From the NCBI GenBank assembly GCA_000310025.1, contig FN649736.1:5447659-5511658 (forward strand): 64,000 bases of DNA, written 5' to 3'. This document shows, one piece after another, positions 10,073-53,595 of the stretch; positions within the stretch are counted from its first letter, which is position 1; the number at the start of each line of letters is the position of its first letter. The position numbers were made by a program, and so were the translations under genes. The DNA comes from Ectocarpus siliculosus. Its lineage: Eukaryota; Sar; Phaeophyceae; Ectocarpales; Ectocarpaceae. The notes under the pieces were generated by a model. That model ran no database searches. It was not told the origin of the DNA and saw only the letters and a program-made list of their open reading frames with translations.

Positions 10073-13000
10073 TTAGTAATAGCGTCCTGCTTCAAGCGGC
10101 TGGTTGATGTTGTGAGGGCACTTCTTGGCGGGGTTGAAGCGCTTTCCCTGGTCATGACCACACAAGGGGTGTGCGAGAGAAGGCAACGAAGGAAGGGATG
10201 GTTCACGGACAAAGCTTAGCTTGACATGGCGTATACGCAACATGCATAGGATCACGTACACATTATAAACGATGGTAGGTTACGGTCTAGAAAGAACCGC
10301 ACTGCTGTTACAGTACAGGCAGAGAAGCGACTAGCAGGAAGGCGCAGCATCGTGCATGAAATAAACCAGACACATCCTCCTGCTGACATCGACTTCCAAC
10401 ATTCCGTAACGATTTTTCGGAACGAAACAAAACAATGTCAAGTTCCACCGCAGGTGAACGGCAAAAGTCTTTGACAGAGCAGCATGTCTGCGGCAACCAA
10501 GTGCCGAATCTTGAAAGGGGAGGCGGCGTCACTGCACCGATCGACAGAAAACGACAAAACGACCCTTGGTACACCCTCACGCGAGTCTCGCCGTGGAAAA
10601 GAGCGTTCTGCGTACAGTAGTGTATATATTCGCACTTGTACGCAAAAGACGTGGGTGCTCATGCGTGTGTCCAACAGGAGGCGCTCCGCGCCAGGGAACG
10701 AAGACAAAGATATGCATGCACCCCTCAATACCGTACTCTTTGTAGTTCCGGCTCGTTAGGGTTGGGAAAGGGGAAGGCTTGTCACGAGAGGGTGGTGGGT
10801 GCCCTCGCCAAGTTTTCATCCACGGAACCCCTTCCGGGCCCATCATTTCCACATTATGTTAGTCCGCGATGCGGCGGCACGTGCTTGCCTCAACTGCTAT
10901 CGTCGCCGTAAATCCTACCAGTAGGCATATCAAAATCAAGATCCTCAACGCGAACGTGCAAGAGGTAACTCATGCACTACAACAAGGTATTTTTTGTACT
11001 TTTGGAATCGCAGCATGGCACGAGATTTACATACATACGAAGGCGTCAAAATGCGGTTCATTTTCAACATCCCATGTTGGGCGTAAGCACGAATTGCTGC
11101 AACTATGGCTGTGTAGATGCATACAGCAATAATAGTTGTGTTGTAGAAGCACTATAATCACAACATCCCAACCGGATAGACTTCGGTGAACGCAACTCTC
11201 AGCAACTGACGCCTTTTACCCTTGACACACATGGCGGTACTTCACTACTTCGAACAACACAACAACCATGTACCACACTTCACTTACTTCCAACGGAAAG
11301 TGTCACCTAAGCTAGATGTGTACTTGTCTGTGTGGATTGGAACAACAACGAGCAAAGGGAGGATACATTTTGTGTACATACGTGTCTTCCACTTCAAATC
11401 AGCGCTCACAGCGCTTATATTGCCGTTTACTCCAGCCCGTGGTCACACAGAAGAGCCCCTCTCTACCTTCCCCTCCTGCGATACTTTGCCTTCGATTTTT
11501 AATGCTAGAAGAGTTCAGCACTCTTCCCTCTGTGTACATACGAACTAGCGCTATCCACTAGGCCAGGCGCGGAAGCGAGAGAAAAACTCGCTTTGCAAGA
11601 AAGGCTCGCTTGCGCCGGGATTCGAACCCCTGACCTGAACTCTAGAAGGTTTCGAGGATACCACCTAGACAACCGGGGCGACCGGCTTACAGCACAGTAC
11701 AAATTGCCTAATCCTGTCCTATCCGTGGTTCGGTCGTTGCGCCCCTCACAGCTCATTCCATGCAGGCCGTGCAAGTGAACGCAGTGTTCAGAAGTTTTCT
11801 CGAACGTCGAGGTTTCGGTCAGGCCAGACCTTCACTCCTTCCTTCGTGCCCACAGGCTAGACCACAGGCACCCCAAAAATGGATCGATACAGAAGTACCT
11901 GCATTCCGGAGTATCTTCAGTATACTTCTATCACATCTGTCTTACATGATCGAGGCACACTTTATCTATGCATATTCCATGTTTCGACGTACATACCTTC
12001 AGTTCCGATGCCGGTGCACCTCTGGATAGCCCCGAGAACATGGCGCTGTTCAAGGAAGCGATCTTTGCCGGCCGTTGGTTGCCGCTTGTTCCTTGTTGGA
12101 GAGCTGTGCTTGCATTGCACACAGCACCACACAACACACAGCAGACCAAACTCATCATCAGTTGACTATGCATTCAGAAAAATACATACATAAAACAGAA
12201 AGACTACCCATTCGAGATATTGTACCACAGTCGAACGGGATGTGGTAGGAAAGTCTTTACCCATAGAGTAGGCATATGGCACAGTTCATTGACAGGGACC
12301 AAGGTCGGCAAGAAATGCACCCCCCCATTGTTTAACTGCATTGTTTTGTCGAGAGCGCCGAGCAGTAGGCAGCAAGTAACGGAACGCCTCGCACCAGACG
12401 CACGGTGTGGCACCTCCTTACAATTAAAAAACATGCACCGGACACCCCCGTCATGCGCGAGGCGGCGCCGGGGGAATGGCAGCAGCAGCAGCAGCCGGCA
12501 CTCATGTGTCGGTCGTGCATTCCGGCAACCTTATCACGGACGAAACTTTCTGGCCAACAAGATTGGCGGCTGCGGTTGTAGACTTGCATTGACACATTCA
12601 TCTGCATCACACAAGGTGTATTTTCTAGCTGCATATCTGATGTGTGTCAAGAGCCAATCGCGATCACTCAGGACGAGTTCATTGACCACCTTTGGTCCAT
12701 GCGCGTGCTGCTACTGCTGCTGTCGCATCAAAGCTAGAGTACTGTACCTAAAACACCCCGCGGGAACACGGGGAAAAACATAGAGCAAAGTCGGAAGGCA
12801 TCTGCTGGGAGAGAGGGGACAGATCTTCCGTGCACTTGGGGAAAAGATATCCGCTGTTGAACAAGATGCGCTGCAAACAAAGGAACCCTCATCCTACCCT
12901 ACTCTACTCGCCCGATACACACACACGTGCGCGCGCCCGCCCGGGAGCGGGGGGGGGGGGGGGGGGGATAGCGCCAAAATCAGCAAAGTAGCGCCCTCGC

Positions 13001-14357: not shown

Positions 14358-14658
14358 CCGGTCGCCCCGGTGGTCTAGTTGGTGTCCTCGAAACCTTCTA
14401 GAGGTCAGGTCAGGGGTTCGAATCCCGGCGTAAGCGAGCTTTTCTTGCAAAGTGAGTTGTTCTCGCGCTTCCGCTCCTGGCGTAGTGGATAGAGCTAGTT
14501 CGTGTGTACACAGAGGGAAGAGAGTGCTGAACTCTTCTCGCATCGAAAATCGAAGGCAAAGTACCGCAGGAGGGAAGGGTAGAGAGGGGTTCTTCTGTCT
14601 GTGTGACAACGGGTCGGAGTAAACGGCACTAGTGCTGTGAGCGCTGATTTGAAGTGAA
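14358..14658 (+). mobile_element. tRNA-derived SINE, copy 2
   Basis: Head with A box TGGTCTAGTTGG and B box GGTTCGAATCC spaced as in a tRNA gene. Then a shared body that contains a second A-box-like TGGCGTAGTGG near 14478, and a tail TTTGAAGTGAAGACA. The only obvious head change against copy 3 is GTATCC to GTGTCC. Ends are set by comparison with copy 3, whose target duplication is exact. Confidence 0.9.
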
Positions 14659-16334
14659 GACAAAAAGAAACGAAAATTAACGCTCTCCACCCACCAATCA
14701 TTGATTGGGCAGATCGTGTGACTGCGCCGAGACTCCAAACGTCAAGGTTGTGAGGTTACCTACTGAACCAGCCACTGTTGTTGTGTGACCGTGATCGATG
14801 AATGGGTGAAAAACGAAAACATGGGAGCCTTTCGACATCTGACAATTTTGGTCGAAACGCGACAACCAACACTCGTAGTAGGTGGTATGATGGGTATTTT
14901 CGTCCCCTCTGACATGAAGTTTTTTCACGAGGTGCAAAGTTGCCGCCACCAACTACTGCTGTATGGTACGGGCCCGACAGCCAGGTTGGGTCTCTACTTC
15001 CTGGTCATTGCATTCCGTCGAGACTCGAGTTGACTTTATGCATGCGTGTGCGTCTGCAATAAAACAGATGATGGGTGAGTGCTCAATGAAGTCGGGTGAT
15101 GGCAGGGAAGCTTCAGCACGAATGAGCCTCCTGCTTGACCCAGGCTTCCGAGAGCGGGGGCAACACTTGCCTTTTCTTTTTGTTGGCCGCCCTTTGAAAC
15201 AAGAAGAAGATTGCAAGCAACCGGCGCGACAACGGTGATAAACCTTGGGATTGGGGGTTTACTAATGAACTGAGTTGCCGGTCACGTTGGAGACCCTTGT
15301 ACTTGAAGAAGTATACGTTTATCATCAGCGCTAACTCACAAAACTTGCGTGAAAACATCTAGGAGTCACGTTTCACCTCGCAGTCTATCCGTGAAGATAG
15401 TTCGCCTTCTAATGAAATAACCAAATTGAGACCACCCTTGGTCGGAAGATCCGACATCACAAAACAAAACATACCCATCTCCTCTTGCATACGTAGAAAG
15501 TCGTTTCCTCCTTGCCATCACTGGGTGAATACAATCGAAACGGACTCGGTCTCTATACGCTACTACACGCAGAATAGTGCTTCTGCGACAGCCAGTTGGT
15601 GACGTTGAATCCCCAGATCACCTGGGCGGGATGGGCGGCCATCAACAGCATGAGGGTAAATAAATGCTACAAGCGTGGAAAGATTTGGGACACACGTTTC
15701 AATTCCAACAAGAGCTGAGAGCGAGGCGTATTGGTGCATTCATCGGGCGATTCCCATCCCCTACATGAAGCGGATCGCTACGACAGGAAGGGCAAGGACC
15801 AGGGGGCTGGAGGGCAATACTGCGGGTATCTTGTGTCTACCGCGCCCGTCTACAAACATGTCCGTGCATTGATATTGGTGTAGGCTGCTGACGCTTGGAA
15901 ATCGCAGCACGAAAAATTCACCATTGGAGCAAACACCAGACAACCTGGCTGAAGTGCTAAGCTCTCCTGTGAAGCTGGCGTACCTCCCTCGTGTCCACAG
16001 CTCTCCATCAGAACGGCTGGTGCCCTTATGTTGCCTCACAGCAGTCCCTCGGGTGTCGTTGTCTTCGCCAACAGACACAAACCTCGCCGCAGCCGCGACT
16101 AGACGTACGTTGACGGTGGTCGCTGTTGCTTCGAAATCCATCTTGCACGAATCACGAAGTATCAATCCCGCTTGACACAGTGTAGTAGCTGGGGGCAGGG
16201 GATACCAGGCACGTGAAGCGAAAGGGGGAAACCGTACATGAACTTCAGGTGTGATCCCATGAATCTCTTGGCTAACCCTTCAGTTCCGAACATTGAGATT
16301 TCGAGCGCGGGAGACAAAAACTCTTGGAGTAACC
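14659..16334. other. Intergenic, no supported gene
   Basis: No recognised protein or RNA. The only coding-like scrap is on the minus strand at about 16144-16112, an ATG followed by 11 codons and a good donor (GTACGT), which could be a small first exon, but I found no partner exon. Confidence 0.4.
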
Positions 16335-34889: not shown

Positions 34890-37800
34890 CTGCAAAGGAT
34901 TCACGATCATATTCGATTTCATTCGACTCGATTGGTACAGACATACACACACACGCGACGGTCGGAATATTATGGCGTGCACCGCTGAGCAATTCCCTCG
35001 TGTGACCTGAGGTCGGAGCTCTTCAGTTTGAGAGAAACAAGGCCGTAGGGTAGTCAGTACTCACGCAATGCGCACGGCAGAAAATAATTGGATGTCGAAC
35101 AACACAAAGCACAAGAGGCCGAAGCAACCCTGTGTTTGTCTGAGACAAGTCGCCTACAAGTCGCCTACAACGGTCGTCTGCTTATATGTAGACGCTAAGG
35201 CGAGTTGCGAGGATAAAACTCGTCCAGCAAAGGTTGCACTGCGTGGAACTGATCGAGTGTGCACTAATGTCGAATCATTTCCGGGCAAGCGAGTTCTTTT
35301 ACTACGCCAGGTGGGCACGAAGCACAGGCGAACCGCGCAACCTACCCGTGCATCACAGAACCACAAACAGATGAGCATGAAGCACTTTCTATCTACGTAT
35401 CTTTCTCTCGGCATCTCTCTCTCTCTCCCCCGCCAGCCATTCGCACACCTCGCACAAATCCACTAAATACTGAGTATCCATCTCGTTCTCGGCGTTTTGT
35501 TACACCGCTCAACGCATGACGCTAGGAGTTTGCCCCAATTTTGCGTTATGTGTTTGCCTGCGAGGCGGAGGAGGCGCATCAATCAAAGCGCCAAGGTTTG
35601 CGAACTCGTGTGCACCCAAGACTCATGTTTGCATTGTTCGAGTTCGAGACTCAATACTTGTATTGAAGGCAGCAGCAAGCCAATCCAAACAAGATGCCAA
35701 CTTGCTGCGTATGAACCATACTGAATACCATGCGTTCCAAGAAGAGAGGGTGCCGTTCAGATATTCAACGGGAACAGGAGGGCTCTGCCCAGGACATGTG
35801 TGTTATAGGACGGAATGGCCGATAGGAACAGCAGTTTTGGTACCAGCAAACACCATCTTCGGGAGACCCAGAGGGGATGACTGCCGTCAGGGTTCTGATT
35901 CAATGACAAACTTTCCTATTACAGAGAGCGCCCGCGCTTCAAAACTTGTCAGAGAAGAAGTCGATATAGCCTCGAAAAACTCCAAAACTAAGAACTGGAG
36001 CACCATTTGTGAGCTCGGTTAAGACCCCCTACACTAAAACCTATACGGCGGCCATTCGTAGGATGACGTTCGGAACCAAGATCCCCAGCCTCGACCTAAA
36101 GGTTAAAGTCTACAAGTGCGGGCGCGTTCTGCATACGCAGTGACAACCACCCCCGCAGCACGGATACCAACAACTACAATTCCCTTGGGGTCAACCTCCT
36201 TTGAATACAGTATCAGGCAGGAGAGAACCCCCCCCCCCCTCCACCTCGCTCGCCCTTTCCCGAGCGCCCGATACCCCATGCCGTCCAGAGGACAAAAAAG
36301 GGGCGGCCTGTCAATGGTAGGTGTTTGGTCTAGCCCTAACTCTCAAGAAAGCTTCGCTCTACATGTCATGTGGACGTCGGTGCGTTGCTGTTGATCAGCT
36401 ACTTGTGGGTACACGTACATCAGGGTGTTCCTTCATTTGTCACATGTTGAATACAAATATGGGTGCGCTGGCGAGCTCGGTAACATTAGTCTCACATGCA
36501 AGCATGAAGAGCGCTGCAAACCGCAGAACTGCTGTAGAATCGAACCCACACCAAACAGATGCGCCACGCAAGGTGCAAGTGACCGGCACTCTTGTCCAAG
36601 ATTACAACAAGTCGCACAGAAACACTTACATCGTTACCGTGGCTTGCGTTGCACATACATACCGCGAAGCACACCGAGAGAAGCACCACTGCTGCGGTAC
36701 GTACGTAAAACATGTAATGACGGCCACATTTTCTGAACAGACCATGCAGTATTTCGTCATCTCGAGACTAGCTGTGAGCTGAGTTGACGTACGTTGTTGT
36801 TGTTGTTGTTGTTGTCTTCACATTAAACTCGTGTCAGTTGCTAATCCCAAAATCTAGCAAAGACGCGGTCCGTGGTCACAAAAATGCTAGAGCCATCAGA
36901 AGATCTAAAGAACACGCAAACTAGCAAGAAAAGGGTACACAAGCCCGAAGAGGTACACCTACATCCCTGCAGCACGTTTGCCCAAAAACTGAACTTCCCA
37001 TCCACACACTACATTCGACTACAGCAGCATCATCCCCCCTGTCCTACACTTTACCAAAACGAATGTCCACTACAGCGTACAGCTGTATGGAGTGCTGCCT
37101 GTACAATACACCATGGCAGGCATGGTACAAGTTCGGGGCGCGCAACTGCTGTCTGAATTGCTGTCAGGATGCGTCCGTGGACATGCAGCACAGTGAAAAA
37201 GAACAACCAACCAAAGCCATCATTGCAATTGACAATCACCGAATCTACTGATCATCTGTGTTGGACACAGCAGTGTAAATAATCGTTTGGTGAAACACAA
37301 CAAAAAAGTCCACAACAATACAGTAGCTACAACAGCAGGCCGGTGGTATCGTTTGATACACAACAGTAGTCCCTGGCAGCTCGCGAAATTATATCATGCG
37401 TAAGTTTATTGCAGCAAAACGGGCGCGTGACTTGCCTTGACCTTCCCAATGGCTACTGAGTGCACCATCGTGCCCCGATAGACACACGCGGACATGGCTG
37501 GATAGGTAGGGTGGCGCTGTCTCTCCTCTCTCCTCTCTCCGCTCCAGCAACGGCAACACACCGCCCGCCTTCCGCCGCCGCCGGCCAACGCAGTTGACGA
37601 TTGAGAAGTCCTCGCCGAAAAGGTTTCCTGCCTTCTTGGCTCCTACAACACCACCCAAAGCTCGGCGTCCAAACTGCTGTGTCTGGATGTATGTATGTAA
37701 GTCCAACCGACTGCCAGCCTACAAGAGAAGGATGTCGAATCGTCGCGCAAACCAAATAAATAGAGAGAGAACCAAAACTCGTGAAGGGGGCCCAACAGAC

Positions 37801-38944
37801 CGTACATTGCGTACGTATCTACGGAGATGGCACTCCGGATCCATATAGTTTATTAATATATAGGCGTAGGCGGTCCCCGGATCCACGGATGGATGAACCC
37901 TACCTGCACCCGAACGAACGGACGGGTATAGTCTTTCTGAGTTTGTTTGGATTTATATTTCCTAACTCTAATACCCCGGTCATCTATGTCCCACAGATCA
38001 CCTCGGGAGAAAACACACTCCGATCACAGGGGACATACCGCCTGCAATGATGTGCAACGCAATGAATCCCGCGTGCGTGCGTGCACCGCGCGACATATAT
38101 ATTTGTGGCGAGACCGACTGACACCTTTATTCACCTCATTTGATTGACAGCGGTATGTGTAGTCTTTCTGTGTGTGTGTTTTTTTTATTATTCCTTAATT
38201 AAGTATACAGCTAAAGAGCGGCCGAATCGGTTTTTTCACTACATGCATCATAAAGACACAGTGCATGCAATGCATGTATGTGTAGCATATATATATATGT
38301 ATGTCTCGCCGCCACCGATTCCGTCGCTCGCTGCGGAGGAGGCGGCCTGCGGAGAGCCTCTTTCTCCTGCGCCGTTTTGGCATCCTCCACTGCCCCCGCT
38401 GGCGCCGCCACGCTGTCGGCCGATGACTCAGCAGTATTGTCGCACCGTACTGTCGTCGCCGTGCCAGCGAGGGTGATCCGAAACTTGAAAGATAGTGCAG
38501 CCAACACCGTTCTTTTTTCGCACCCCGGTACCCCGGTGCCATAGACTAATAATATCTTAACAACATACCACATGAATAGTACAATAACCCCGAGGGGTGG
38601 GTGAGAAACCACCGCCATCAACAACGTAGTATGCATACCGGTGCGTTGGCCCGCACAATTTAGTGGACTTGGTTTCCACGTGCGGAGATAGATAGATAGA
38701 TAGATGTGGCTCAACGTGTTTTCATTTCATATATCATCGTTGGGTCCACACTAACCACCACCCTCTACTACATACATACCACCGTGGTGCCAGTATGCGC
38801 AAATTTGGCACCTCTCCCACGGCGGTGCATCGACCACGCACAAGTTAACCTGTGACCACGGGAATCGACCGCGTCGAGTGTTGGATCAGTACGGACATAC
38901 GAAGGTACTGGGTAGAGAGAGATCGGAACGGTTTTTAATGTGAA
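34890..38944. other. Region upstream of guanine deaminase
   Basis: Should hold the GDA first exon and promoter; neither could be fixed. Two minus-strand segments look coding-like: about 37665-37575 (FGRRALGGVVGAKKAGNLFG after a CAG) and about 38510-38310 (Ala/Glu/Lys-rich). They do not fit the missing GDA N-terminus and I cannot join them to anything. Confidence 0.35.
36792..36816 (+). repeat. (GTT)n microsatellite
   Basis: Eight units of a GTT trinucleotide. Confidence 0.9.
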
Positions 38945-38945
38945 G

Positions 38946-38994
<49 letters not shown>
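38945..38994 (+). repeat. (AAC)n microsatellite
   Basis: About 16 perfect AAC units. Confidence 0.97.
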
Positions 38995-38997
<3 letters not shown>

Positions 38998-39466
38998 ATC
39001 TACTCGGGCGGGGTATTAGGGCTCGAACCAGGATGGATGCAAACGGAGCGTGCGTGCGCAAAATCCAAATTTCGTCTCTGAGGGACATATTCATATGCAT
39101 GCATGCACACCACTTCATCTACCCGCCTCCTCCATGGTTATTCTAGACTAAAAATAGTCATTTTTCTGTCGATGTTTCTCGCTCCATTTATTTCTGAGAG
39201 CGGAGACCGGAACGGACGTGGTATATTTTTTAGTCGTGTGTGATGAAGAAGACAACATGTCATCAACGAGAAACAGATAGATAGATGGATGTTTGGATCA
39301 ATCGTCGTCTCTCACGCGCTTTCTTTCGTCCCTCGCGCTTGGTTGGTTGCCGCGCCATCAATGATGAAGAGCAGACCGAACCTGAAACTAACTTCCTATC
39401 AACACATCATCATCTCTTGTTTTTGCATGATACAGCAGTCCGCTAGTGTTCGCTGAGATATCACAT

Positions 39467-42539: not shown

Positions 42540-44690
42540 ACAAGACACGATGTGTGTGTACGGGCTTCTGCATACTCAATACACCCACATATACCATACA
42601 CCACAGTTCCACGGAACGAGGAACAGTTAAGCGCGCCCGCGCGGCCTCAGGAACTCAAAAGCGAAATAAACCAACCATTAAATGCCACAAAAAGACGGGT
42701 GGGGGGTAGAAGAAGGATTGGTTAAGTAGGTTTCAAGGCAAACTGTTGACGAGCGCTCATGAACACGTCCTAGGTATCGGCTTGAACAGGTGGTGCTCGT
42801 CATGCGATCCACACGCTCAAGGGTGCTGGAAGACATATTTTTTGAATAGTGCTTATCAGCAGCTAGACGTTTCTCCGACACTTTCCGTTCCCCCGCAAGC
42901 GGCTACATGAGCATTCGCATCCGATTTTTTGCATGCGAGACACCGATGACGGGGTAATGACCACACGGCTTGAACTGGTAGCATGCAGGTGACCGGTCGC
43001 CCCGGTGGTCTAGTTGGTATCCTCGAAACCTTCTAGAGGTCAGGTCAGGGGTTCGAATCACGGCGTAAGCGAGCTTTTCTTGCAAAGCGAGTTTTTCTCT
43101 CGCTTCCGCTCATGGCCTAGTAGATAGCGTTAGTTCGTGTGTACACAGAGGGAAGAGAGTGCTGAACCCTTCTCTCATTAGGAATCGAAGGCAAAGCACC
43201 GCAGGAGGGGAGGAGAGAGGGGCTCTTCTGTGTGACCACGGGTTGAGTAAACGGCACTAGCGCTGTGAGCGCAGAAGTTTGAAGTGAATGCAGCACCTGT
43301 TGTAGCCACATGCCCGAGATTGATCACACACATCCCACCACCTCCAGAATTGCCACCGAAGAGACCGTGTTCCACGTTTCCCATGGTCTGTTTGCCGATT
43401 ATAATACCCTCCCCGGGGTATTGAAATTATTGTGCGGCGTTTATCTGCCTCAAATGTGTCAACTCTTGTTTCCGGGAAGGTCATGTTGTGAAGCTTGCCG
43501 ATCAGGGCTATTATTCATGCAATGGAAAATTCACGCATTTTTTCACGGAACAGTGAAAACAAGACCCGAATATTTTCCGCTCGTTCTACTCGTGATGTCA
43601 TCGCAAAACGTACGTTTCCTTCCCTGAAAGCACGCTTTGCTCGGCACACAACAGGTTGACTTGGTTTTGCTCGCCATAGAGCAGCGGTAAAAGCGCAATG
43701 AGCCGCGCCCGACACAAACAACAGCCCACTTACAAAGGTCCCGTCCACCCGGCCCGCTGTTTTCAGTTTTCAGCAACAAAAGACGCAGGGCAGAGTGGCG
43801 CCACCTGGCTGTTGCTTCCGATTTCTTCAGTTTGCCGGCTCATTTTTCAGGGTTGCGACTCCTTTCTTTGACACCTGCCCAAAGGTACAGACGAGCTCAA
43901 CAATCATAGGGCGGCAGCGGGGCTGACGGCCAGCATCATATAGATGGCCAATCCGAAAGAATTGGCGTGTCGGAGTCCCTGTTGCGCTACTGCTGCGTTG
44001 TGCCGTGGATTGAAGTTGATGTGCCCTACCAAAAACGCATCATCTCGCCGCACTTTTTCCAACGGCGTTTTGGTGAGGCGGGACACGTCTGTCACACACC
44101 TTCTAGACCAGCACCCAAGCCCCCAATACCCACGAAGCAGCACAGCGCCGGGCGTTAGTATCATATAGACAGCCGAACCGGAGGAATCAGCGCGTTGGAG
44201 GTCTTGGTGCTGCTGCTGTACTCGTTCTACTGTTTCCGTGTTGGCCATGTGTGGTTGAAAAACATTCTCCAGTACCGACAGCAGCAGTTGAAGGCGAGAG
44301 CACCACGCAATATCTCATATGAACCAAGAACAAGCTGGACGCGGCTTCTGCCGCCTGTCCGTCCCCTCGACAGACCTGGATGTGAGTCTAGCAGGTCTTA
44401 CGAGCGTTCTCAGTGACGTTACAGCGCCCGCGGGGGGCCTGCCCGACCCTTGTGTCAAATTCCCCGGATCCGTGAAAGCAGCAAGCCCCGAAAAAAATAC
44501 TCGCTGCTCTGTTTGTCGGATCGGGGGAAAAATGCCTTCATGTTTATTTGCAAGAAAGCACGCGTCCGTGCATTTTTTCGTTTTTTTGTGGTCGTTAATA
44601 AAAGGCCTCAGACAGCAATCCGAGGTCTTGTTCCCTATTCCCTGTCCAAAAGGGTGCAGTTAAGACACGCCCTCAACTGCTGCTGTTTAG
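42540..44690 (+). mobile_element. Repeat family K, copy 1 (with nested SINE)
   Basis: Alignable with 50474-52374 from about 42580 onward, with the same order of segments, and over 43504-44604 with the minus strand of 52494-53591. The right end (near 44640-44685, CCCTGTCC...GACACGCCC) matches the right inverted repeat of copy 2; the left inverted repeat is missing or too decayed. The 43507-44601 part is bounded by TCA on both sides. A SINE is inserted at 42989. No enzyme recognised; a decayed frame on the minus strand (44248-43904) is shared with the 52.5 kb copy. Confidence 0.75.
42989..43287 (+). mobile_element. tRNA-derived SINE, copy 3, with exact target duplication
   Basis: Flanked by ATGCAG at 42983-42988 and 43288-43293. 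The related repeat at about 50895-50925 has the same flanks joined with only one ATGCAG, a paralogous empty site that fixes both ends (299 bp). A box TGGTCTAGTTGG, B box GGTTCGAATCA (last base mutated), second A-box-like TGGCCTAGTAG, tail GTTTGAAGTGA. Sequence-proven retroposition-type insertion. Confidence 0.95.
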
Positions 44691-50473: not shown

Positions 50474-52374
50474 CATGTACTAACGTCCCTTTGCTGGACA
50501 GGGAACACGGTGCGTGTCGTTGTGTCCTAACATACACCGCATTTCCAGGAACGCGGAATATTTCAGAGCGCGTGTGCGGCCCGCGGGTACTCAAAGGCAA
50601 CAAATACAACTGTTGGATGCAGCAGAAGCACGTGTGGGTGGTGTAGGTATTGAGGGAAGCTGTTGACGAGCGCACATCAAACACATGCGCTAGGTATCGG
50701 CTAGAACAGGCGGTGGTCGTCATGCAATCCGCACCCTCGACAGCGCTCTTGACGGCTTGCTGTTTGAGTTGTGGTGATCGGCAGCTTGCCATTTCTTCGA
50801 CAATTTCTGTTCCCCCATACAACGGCTACACGAGCATCCGCCGCCGCTTTTTGGCATGCAAGAAACCTGATGATCGTGGCGATGCCTTGAACTGGTAGCA
50901 TGCAGCACCCGTGGCAGCCACATGCCCGAGAGTGATCACACACACCACCACCACGCCCTCAACTGCCGCCGAACAGCCTGTGTTCCACGTTACCTTTTGT
51001 CTGTTGGTTAATTTTAGTACCCGCGAGTATTAACATTATGGTACGACATAACTACCTCAAAGAGGGAACGTGTGTGTCAATTCTTGTTTCCCGGAAAGTT
51101 TTTTCTTGTGGCTGACCAAAGATAGGATAGCTGTTGCTACAACGAGCGACAGCTGATAGTTTTAACTCTCGTCAGAAGTGTGCGTCCACGGGCGGAAGTA
51201 CGTGTCACGGAGAGGCTTATTCCTACGTATCGACACCCCAAATACCCGAATCGGTGAATGAATTCCCCGATCGGTCAATTGGATCGGTCCACAAAAAATC
51301 GGCGCAAAAAAACGTTTCCTGCATCGCTGAATGCACGCCTTGCTTGACACACAACAGGCCAAACTGGCTTTGCTCACCAAAGAGCGGTGGTACAAGCACA
51401 AAAATGAGCACCGACACAGAGGACAGCACACTTGAAAAGACCCTGTCCACCCGTCCTGCTGTTTTCAGCACTGGGGGCAGGGAGCAGTGTCGCAAACTGG
51501 GTGTCACGGTGTCGCCTGCGATTTCCTCAAGTCCTTCCACTCTTTTTTCCCGTGGTGACCCAAGTGTGACCCGCTCCCTGTCGAAAGGTTGACGAACTCA
51601 ACAATCATAGAGAGGCAGCGGCGCTGACGGTCAGTATCATATACATGACCAATCCGAAAGAATTAGCGTGTCGGAGGCCCTATTGCTCTACTGCTGCGTA
51701 GTGCCGTTGGTTTGTGGGGCTGTCTACGACCCAAAACAGGCCATCTCACGGCATTTTTTCAAACGGCAGTTTGGCGAGGTGGTACACATCTCTCACACAC
51801 GTTCTAGAGCAGCACCCAAGCCCCCAACACCCATGAAGCAGCACAGCGCCGGGCGTTAGGATCACATAGACAACCGAACAGAAGGAACAGCGCGTTGGAG
51901 GTCTTGGGGCTGCTGCTGTCCTCATTCTACTGTTTCCGTGCTTATCATGTATATGTGGTACAATAAATCCCCGCGTGTCAACAGCAGCAGTCGAGGGCAC
52001 CATGGGATGTCTCGGTTTGGACAAACAATGACTGACCTGAACGCGTCTTTTACCGCGATTCTATCCGCTGTGCCCGCTGGGCGTGTGTTGTCTGCTTTGT
52101 GTGTGTGCCTGTGCGTGTGTGCAGCTGCAATCTGCTGCGTGCTCCGAAAAAAAAGAAGAAATGCTGACCCATTCTATAATCAAGTGATGTAGTCGAAAAC
52201 CTAGAAAAAGCGGGTACATACACGCAAGGTTTTTTGTTTTTCAGCGAGCCCTTGCAATTCGGGGGGCCGGCAGTCTAGATTAGAAATCTCGCTTCGCTCG
52301 AATCAGACAATAATGATGAGTTACCTATTCCGTGTTCCCTGTCCAGTAAAGGGACGTTAGTACACGCCCTATGT
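50474..52374 (+). mobile_element. Repeat family K, copy 2 (about 1.9 kb with terminal inverted repeats)
   Basis: The ends are inverted: GTACTAACGTCCCTTT...GGACAGGGAAC at 50480-50510 and its reverse complement at 52337-52374. The uninterrupted flank exists at about 61,050, an empty site. The body aligns with copy 1 (42.6-44.7 kb) but has no SINE. No transposase identified. The right end could be a few bases off. Confidence 0.82.
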
Positions 52375-52493: not shown

Positions 52494-53591
52494 GGGTGCT
52501 TCTTATCGACCAATAAAACACGAAAAGAAAAACGAAACCGTGTTTTCTTGTACACATATGGAGGCGTTTTTCCCCGAAAGCGTGAAAAGAAGGAGCCGGG
52601 TTTTTTTGGGGCTTGCTACTTAAACGAATTCGTGTTTTTGACGGAAACATCGGACAAGCGCACCGCGGGCGCTGTAACATCACTGAGAACGCCAGAAAGA
52701 CCTGCCAGACTCACGTCCAGGTCTGTTGTGGAGATGGACAAGCGGCAGAAGCGGCGTTCCGTCCGTTCTTGGCCCAAAACTAGGCATTGCGTGGTGCTCT
52801 CGTCTTCAACTGCTGCTGTTGGTGCTTGGGGATTTTTTTCAATCACACATAGCAAACACGGAAACAGTAGAACGAGTACAGCAGCAGCAGCACCTCCAAC
52901 GCGCTGATTCCTTCGGTTCGGCTGTCTATATGATACCATCTCCCGGCGCCGTGCTGCTTCGTGGGTATTGGGTGCTTGGGTGCTGCTCAATAAAGTGTGT
53001 TAGAGACGTGTGCCACCTCACCAAAATGCCGTTGGAAAAAATGCGGCGAGATGATGCGTTTTTGGTCGGACGCATCAACATCAATCCACGGCACCACGCA
53101 GCAGTAGAGCAACAGGGCCTCCGACACGCTAATTCTTTCGGATTGGCCATCTATATGATGCTGGCCGTCAGCGCGGCTGCCGCCCTATAATTGTTGAGCT
53201 CGTCTACCTTTGGGCAGGTGGTGGTCAAAGATGGGAGTCGCAACCGTGAAAAATGAGCTGGCAAACTGAAGAAATCGCAAGCAACACCCAGGTGGCGACA
53301 CTCTGCCCTGAGCCTGTTGTTGCTGAAAACTGAAAACAGCAGGCCAGGTGGACGGGATCTTTCTAAGTGTGTTGTCCTCTGTGTCGGGTGCTGCTCATTG
53401 CGCTTTCACCGCTGCTCTATGGTGAGCAATACCATGTCAACCTGTTGTGTGTCGAGCAAAACGTGTATTCAGGGAAGGAAACGTGCGTTTCGCGATGACA
53501 TCACGATTAGAACAAGCGAAAAATAATCGGATCTTCTTTTCACCGTTCCGTGGAAAAAAGCGTTTTTTTTTCGTTGCGTTAACAATAACCC
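52494..53591 (-). mobile_element. 1.1-kb TIR element, PIF/Harbinger-like, minus orientation
   Basis: Flanked by TTA (52491-52493 and 53592-53594), with ends GGGT...ACCC. The flanks joined without it are seen at about 61,160 (paralogous empty site). The minus strand aligns with 43507-44601, itself flanked by TCA. A three-base TNA duplication and G-rich ends fit PIF/Harbinger elements (family knowledge; assignment is inference). No DDE transposase is visible. A plus-strand frame ending at 53190 is shared with copy 1. Confidence 0.8.
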
Positions 53592-53595
53592 TTAG

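What the first reader, a model, noticed from the sequence alone, without database searches (positions are those of the whole stretch)
42983..43293. tRNA-derived SINE family with a proven insertion
Three copies (11385-11689 minus, 14358-14658 plus, 42989-43287 plus) share a pol III A/B-box head, a common body and a TTTGAAGTGRAGACA-type tail. The 43-kb copy is flanked by ATGCAG duplicates, and the related repeat at about 50.9 kb has the same flanks joined without it. Tail lacks poly(A), implying recognition by a specific LINE 3' end.
Basis: partly seen in the sequence, partly recalled or inferred. Interest (0 to 1): 0.75.

Follow-up and report, generated by a model that had tools for sequence, protein, structure and literature searches.

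The report
Brown-algal SINE with structured RNA core
The repeat is a genuine short retroposon (SINE) of an Ectocarpus-type brown alga that most likely copies itself with the help of a longer element, and it belongs to a wider group of such repeats that share one folded RNA core but end in different tails.

Summary
The observation largely holds. Three copies, about 89% alike, lie in the window. The 43-kb copy is a clean insertion with a 6-bp duplication (ATGCAG); a related repeat at 50.9 kb is the empty site. The genome has 783 sites within 3 mismatches of the head 27-mer (reversed control 0). Sixty-five full-length copies show no detectable flank similarity; the youngest are 0.3% from consensus. 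One premise is wrong: 60 of 65 copies have an A-run at the 3' end. The inference survives: the tail resembles the 3' end of an EN+RT LINE (GTGACCACGG, hairpin, GTGAAGACA), a signature also seen on a second LINE-like family and on a ~0.5-kb non-autonomous element. One SINE copy sits inside that LINE's 3' end, again with a 6-bp duplication. Beyond the finding, other SINE families here (II, III, V) share a two-hairpin RNA core with the window family; a model built from family II alone finds the rest, and covariation exceeds 500 of 500 shuffles. Their tails differ from the window family's. This is a new SINE superfamily with a central domain, a kind known from animals. Six literature searches found no tRNA-derived SINE described in brown algae. 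Puzzle: T5 runs follow the head.

The parts
42983..42988 (+). left target-site duplication ATGCAG
   Evidence: empty site
42989..43287 (+). SINE family I copy, 299 bp (first 4 bases GTGA are extra to the usual start)
   Evidence: 5.3% substitutions from the 65-copy consensus
43006..43016 (+). A box TGGTCTAGTTG
43050..43060 (+). B box GGTTCGAATCa (10 of 11 consensus letters)
43092..43096 (+). TTTTT run after the head, like a pol III terminator
   Evidence: sequence; family counts
43147..43244 (+). conserved two-hairpin core
   Evidence: match to model R1 built from another SINE family (20.3 bits, E 0.0043)
43232..43287 (+). LINE-like 3' tail (GTGACCACGG, hairpin, TTTGAAGTGA), cut short in this copy
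43288..43293 (+). right target-site duplication ATGCAG
50900..50905 (+). ATGCAG of the empty site in the related repeat
14358..14660 (+). SINE family I copy, 3.6% from consensus; no clear duplication
11385..11689 (-). SINE family I copy, 6.9% from consensus; no clear duplication
38832..38994 (+). 5'-truncated copy of the LINE's 3' end with (ACA)n tail; TGCATC at 38826-38831 and 38995-39000, and 10 extra bases at its 5' end
   Evidence: 99% to L059 over 125 bases, coordinates
36793..37285 (-). non-autonomous ~0.5-kb element with the same 3' signature and (ACA)n tail

Best explanation
The repeat is family I of a tRNA-headed SINE superfamily in an Ectocarpus-type brown alga. Inferred: RNA made from the internal A/B-box promoter is taken up by an EN+RT LINE whose protein recognises the 3' signature GTGACCACGG, hairpin, GTGAAGACA. 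The LINE nicks the target and reverse-transcribes the RNA there, leaving short duplications (about 4-9 bp), an A-rich tail, 5'-truncated copies and a few extra 5' bases. Shown: copy number, dispersal, duplications above shuffles, two empty sites, the shared 3' signature, an open EN+RT frame in the LINE, and a folded core shared with other SINE families. Not shown: transcription by pol III, and trans-mobilisation by this LINE.
For: Dispersal: 783 head sites and 454 tail sites; among 65 full-length copies, 0 similar left-flank and 0 similar right-flank pairs at E 1e-4. Duplications: mean score above all 200 reshuffled pairings (2.88 against 2.08, highest shuffle 2.55). Empty sites: 43 kb/50.9 kb, and copy L004 inside the LINE 3' end, duplication AACACT plus 10 extra bases. 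Partner: 18 of 26 RT loci L039-L064 and 11 of 20 further RT-downstream pieces hold both tail motifs close together. The SINE tail aligns to the LINE end better than to any of 5000 random window stretches with known copies masked (18.6 against a best of 12.2). Pattern GTGACCACGGN{46,75}GTGAAGACA: 261 sites, control 0. Two SINE copies (L007, L116) carry CAA repeats like the LINE's in their A-rich tails. LINE protein: RVT_1 E 3e-34; the EN match, 21.7 bits, is below Pfam's cut-off of 24.5. Recent activity: divergence from 0.3%, median 2.3%, in a sample biased towards intact, tail-bearing copies.
Against: The LINE ends in (ACA)n while the SINE ends mostly in A(n). The match is two short blocks, not a long identity. 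Runs of 5 or more T follow the head in 55 of 65 copies, and 13 of 20 host tRNA genes fetched have T5 or longer in their last 11 fetched bases, so full-length pol III RNA may be disfavoured. Rfam's tRNA model does not report the head at E up to 10. Only 11 of 65 copies have a duplication score of 5 or more, against 4.8% of reshuffled pairings. Seven of the 20 RT-downstream pieces held neither motif.
Confidence: 0.8

Rival explanations
1. The SINE is mobilised in the relaxed way, by a LINE that recognises only the A-rich tail; the LINE-like block is an old relic.
For: A-run of 5 or more in 60 of 65 copies, against (ACA)n on the LINE. The tail windows are kept about as well as the rest of the element (96.5-98.2% against 93-99%), so conservation does not single the tail out.
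Against: A LINE family, a second LINE-like family and a non-autonomous element share the signature. Hairpin arms persist in most of the 20 distinct SINE strings while the loop varies. PMC3747384 (passages read) notes that stringent LINEs can also end in poly(A).
Confidence: 0.2
2. Copies spread as segmental duplications or as cargo of a DNA transposon.
For: Related group III (L167-L173) does share flanks and sits inside a larger repeat.
Against: 0 similar flank pairs among 65 family I copies; two empty sites with 6-bp duplications; A-rich 3' ends.
Confidence: 0.03
3. The RNA is made mainly by pol II read-through from host genes; the tRNA-like head is a relic or serves another role such as RNA processing.
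For: T5 or longer runs after the head in 55 of 65 copies; relatives have T7 (L174), T5 (L175) and T9 or longer (L167, L168) after the head.
Against: 47 of 65 copies align from base 1 of the query and the other 18 from bases 2-8, though the filter allowed up to 15, so copies begin near one point. The boxes keep tRNA spacing and the head is kept across families I-III.
Confidence: 0.15

Closest known systems
SINE superfamilies with a conserved central domain (CORE-, V-, Deu-, Ceph-SINEs; HaSE1/HaSE2 of Helicoverpa armigera, PMC3272025, passages read)
   Same: tRNA-like head, shared central domain, different tails; HaSE1 has an RTE LINE-type tail and 5'-truncated copies.
   Different: Brown alga rather than animal; the shared core shows covarying hairpins. 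No sequence comparison with the animal domains was made.
RTEX-N1_Ec32 and other LINE-dependent families of Ectocarpus sp. 7 (PMC12477816, section 5 part 1 and passages read)
   Same: Short non-autonomous element whose 3' end follows an autonomous LINE; probably the same or a very close species.
   Different: That paper could not determine the origin of the 5' region and names no pol III promoter for it; RTEX-N1 is ~600 bp with over 6000 copies. The window element at 36.8 kb fits that description better than the SINE does.
Stringent-type SINE/LINE pairs sharing a 3' stem-loop (PMC3747384, passages read)
   Same: SINE and LINE share a 3' hairpin and flanking motif.
   Different: Here the shared letters are two blocks around different predicted hairpins, with no covariation shown for the tail hairpin.

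Membership tests
SINE (tRNA-derived) | internal pol III A and B boxes at tRNA spacing | tested here: met
   consensus A box at 14, perfect B box at 58, 44 bp apart
SINE (tRNA-derived) | head related to a host tRNA | tested here: inconclusive
   Above shuffles for tRNA-Pro (24.5 against maxima 15-16) and tRNA-Val (22 against 12.5-14) among the tRNA genes fetched, which lack Glu, Asp and others; no Rfam tRNA hit
SINE (tRNA-derived) | dispersed copies with target-site duplications and unrelated flanks | tested here: met
   duplications are weak in most single copies
SINE (tRNA-derived) | no protein of its own | not tested
   about 300 bp; no coding test was run on the SINE
SINE (tRNA-derived) | transcribed by pol III | not testable with these tools
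   no RNA data; T5 or longer runs in 55 of 65 copies speak against simple full-length transcription
SINE with LINE-derived 3' end | 3' end shared with a LINE of the same genome | tested here: met
   (two blocks, not continuous)
SINE superfamily with conserved central domain | same central domain in families with different tails | tested here: met
   model from family II finds families I, III and V. I against II/III: core 0.72/0.70 identity (shuffle maxima 0.53/0.54), tail 0.51/0.49 (maxima 0.57/0.55). II and III share a tail, 0.87
RTE / RTE-X LINE (partner) | clade by RT phylogeny | not tested
   Only the architecture was seen; PDB relatives are L1 ORF2p and R2. The RTE label comes from PMC12477816 and recall

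The most novel reading that the evidence does not exclude
Brown algae evolved their own SINE superfamily around a folded RNA core of two hairpins plus conserved single strands. The core works as a portable RNA module, for example a protein-binding or LINE-engaging domain, kept while tails were exchanged to follow different LINEs.
Probability: 0.4. Interest if true: 0.68.

Novelty: new member of a known kind. Interest (0 to 1): 0.52.

Why it matters
The four central domains listed in PMC3272025 (CORE, V, Deu, Ceph; passages read) are from animals, and what such domains do is unsettled as far as I know (recall). A separate case in a brown alga, with a covarying fold and one tail type that fits an identifiable LINE, gives a comparison for what these domains do. 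It also bears on a gap in the 2025 Ectocarpus repeat survey, where the most abundant LINE-dependent short element had a 5' region of undetermined origin.

Tried and rejected
Considered and rejected: segmental duplication. A tRNA gene or known ncRNA: ARAGORN finds none in the window or the consensus, and Rfam gives nothing near a gathering score on the window, on one young family I copy (L095), or on members of II, III and IV; family V was not given to Rfam. Viral carriage: a 27-mer of the head and a 31-mer of the tail have 0 exact matches in viral contigs. A second A-box-like site (consensus 121) was first read as a second tRNA unit; it has no B box, and its best tRNA alignment (14.5) did not beat its shuffle maximum (18), so it is not claimed. 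Covariation inside the tail hairpin: stems nearly invariant, so no support either way. The first tail-to-LINE background was not masked and drew the window's own SINE copies (best 50, z 5.1 and 4.0); it was repeated with known copies masked. A first structural count included two antisense false matches; it was repeated at a stricter cut-off, which also dropped one true window copy.

Led nowhere: pattern GCAGGAGGN{10,40}CCTGTGTGA for further families did not complete. No LINE with the family II/III tail was seen among the RT loci held; the one ATGGGAGAA there lies well inside L049.

Full report
What was checked. The three window copies, the ATGCAG duplication and the empty site at 50.9 kb are real. 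The left flank of the 43-kb copy aligns to 50528-50905 and the right flank to 50900-51099, so the overlap is the duplicated 6 bp. The host repeat itself recurs between 50.5 and 53.6 kb with 70-88% identity.

Where it is. The genome is 189 Mb in 492 contigs. Window ORF 22589-23431 matches an Ectocarpus siliculosus C3HC protein. The 89% identity over 269 positions includes a 21-residue gap that looks like an intron; outside that gap and the ragged ends the letters agree. So this is Ectocarpus or something very near it (inference).

Copy number and age. The head 27-mer has 783 sites within 3 mismatches and the tail 15-mer 454 exact sites; the reversed controls give 0. Some of the 783 may belong to subfamilies. 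From 78 loci (L001-L038, L089-L128) plus the window I kept 65 distinct full-length copies; hits starting after query position 15 or ending before 285, and duplicates, were dropped. Consensus 305 nt; substitutions from it 0.3-6.9%, median 2.3%. The sample favours intact copies: most places came from a best-hits list or from the exact tail. Of the first 30 tail hits, 17 are full length at the hit and 13 are truncated at the 5' end, interrupted or rearranged (tallied).

Retroposition. Flanks of the 65 copies: 0 similar pairs on either side at E 1e-4. A duplication search gave a mean score of 2.88 against 2.08 for 200 reshuffles (highest 2.55); 11 of 65 copies scored 5 or more against 4.8% in reshuffles. 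Most single duplications are therefore weak, and the two with empty sites carry the case. Copy L004 lies in a LINE 3' end: both flanks align to LINE L059 and overlap in AACACT, with 10 extra bases at the SINE's 5' end. The window's own LINE fragment (38832-38994) shows the same kind of scar: TGCATC on both sides and 10 extra 5' bases.

The tail. But 20 aligned LINE loci end in TGTGACCACGGG ... GTGAAGACA followed by ACA repeats; two of the 20 read GCGAAGACA, and two differ by one letter in the first motif. By exact motif 18 of the 26 RT loci L039-L064 hold both. The other 8 are the two one-letter variants and six others, of which L055, L057 and L062 belong to a different element group. Among 20 further RT-downstream pieces, 11 hold both motifs, two more hold the first with a changed second, and seven hold neither. 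The 65-base SINE tail scores 18.6 in global alignment with the LINE end; of 5000 random window stretches with known copies masked, the best reached 12.2. The element at 36.8 kb scores 14.8 against a random best of 13.8. The pattern GTGACCACGGN{46,75}GTGAAGACA has 261 sites, reversed control 0; 100 were listed, long ones cut at 80 letters. Of the 82 distinct strings that I used, my sorting rules put 20 as SINE, 18 as LINE-1-like, 23 as LINE-2-like and 21 as the small element. One LINE-2-like end (L135) lies downstream of an RT match that has two stops; its end reads GTGAAG and then departs. In most of the 20 SINE strings the hairpin arms GGCACTA/TAGTGCTG persist while the loop varies; stems hardly vary, so covariation is not testable there.

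The partner LINE. L059 holds an open 1061-aa piece of a longer frame, with RVT_1 (E 3e-34) and an EN match below Pfam's cut-off; one search reports frames of 1245 aa without stops at three loci of this family (L045, L050, L059). Relatives in the protein search include unnamed Ectocarpus sp. CCAP 1310/34 proteins. Nearest solved structures are L1 ORF2p and R2. The RTE-X label is by architecture and PMC12477816 only.

The superfamily. A search for a tRNA-Glu-like A box led to other SINEs with the same head. Family II: 40 of 764 candidates were scored, all matching; all 18 fetched copies match, 12 of them with exact CAATGATGGGAGAA at the 3' end and six with variants. Group III (seven loci) has the family II type of core and tail, but lies inside a larger repeat with shared flanks. 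Locus L177 (called IV) resembles the core by eye only. Its search gave 9 places, 8 matching in part; the eight regions fetched include a low-copy, worn family V (L204-L211) with a tail ending ATGGGACGAAC or a variant; B-box-like GGTTCGATTC is seen in L207 and L208. Between family I and II/III the head (0.79/0.80) and core (0.72/0.70) exceed shuffles, but the spacer and tail do not.

The core as RNA. A covariance model built from 18 family II copies only was run on 29 sources. At E up to 1 it gave 27 matches: 23 on the expected strand of families I, III and V at E up to 0.1, L210 at 0.3, and three antisense or chance matches. L177, L205, L207 and the tail-only locus L009 were not reported. Four LINE/other RT loci in the set (L039, L055, L059, L135) gave none. 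On the 24 matches with E up to 0.03 (six are copies used to build the model), 91.0% of cells pair, 20 of 31 pairs have a change on both sides (shuffled mean 7.1), and 0 of 500 shuffles reach any of the five measures; slid structures reach at most 9 such pairs. Caveats: 11 of those 20 pairs rest on a single sequence, some in rows such as L208 that look shifted; the alignment is fitted to the model; related rows count more than once. The strongest pair is G-C in 11 rows and A-U in 10, mostly along family lines.

How it probably works. Head as internal promoter (inferred), tail as entry signal for the LINE enzyme (inferred from the shared 3' signature), insertion by target-primed reverse transcription (inferred from duplications, A tails, truncation). 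The core's role is unknown. Since it is kept across families with different tails, I favour a step common to all of them, such as RNA stability, protein binding or delivery to the LINE machinery.

The puzzle. T4 and T5 runs sit between the head and the core: the longest T-run at positions 70-125 is 5 or more in 55 of 65 copies. Among 20 tRNA genes fetched (some perhaps organellar), 13 have T5 or longer in their last 11 fetched bases. Either termination at T5 is leaky, or pol III is not the main source.

Literature. Searches covered the open-access library only. In PMC12477816 (section 5 part 1 and passages) the whole words SINE and SINEs occur about once each and tRNA not at all; its supplements could not be read. 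PMC6418280 (passages) reports 0.0024% SINE in Nemacystus by RepeatMasker. PMC3272025 and PMC3747384 were read in passages. So 'not described before' holds only for these searches. CORE, V, Deu and Ceph domains were not compared by sequence.

Noticed in passing
36793-37285 (-): About 0.5-kb non-autonomous element with the LINE-type 3' signature and (ACA)n tail; its 3' end aligns with all seven further loci fetched by that signature. It fits the published description of RTEX-N1_Ec32, but the sequences were not compared.
   Followed up: partly
42592-44601, 50528-52028, 52500-53592: A repeat of about 2 kb in both orientations (70-88% identical), host of the 43-kb SINE insertion; not identified.
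   Followed up: no
L042, last ~50 bases: A LINE 3' end runs into CCCTAA-type, telomere-like repeats followed directly by the SINE head.
   Followed up: no
L167-L173: A SINE of the same superfamily held inside a larger repeat with shared flanks.
   Followed up: partly
43092-43096: TTTTT run inside the SINE, like the ends of host tRNA genes.
   Followed up: partly
L186 and L175, minus strand: The core model also matches its own antisense weakly (E about 0.04), probably because the hairpins are near-palindromic.
   Followed up: yes
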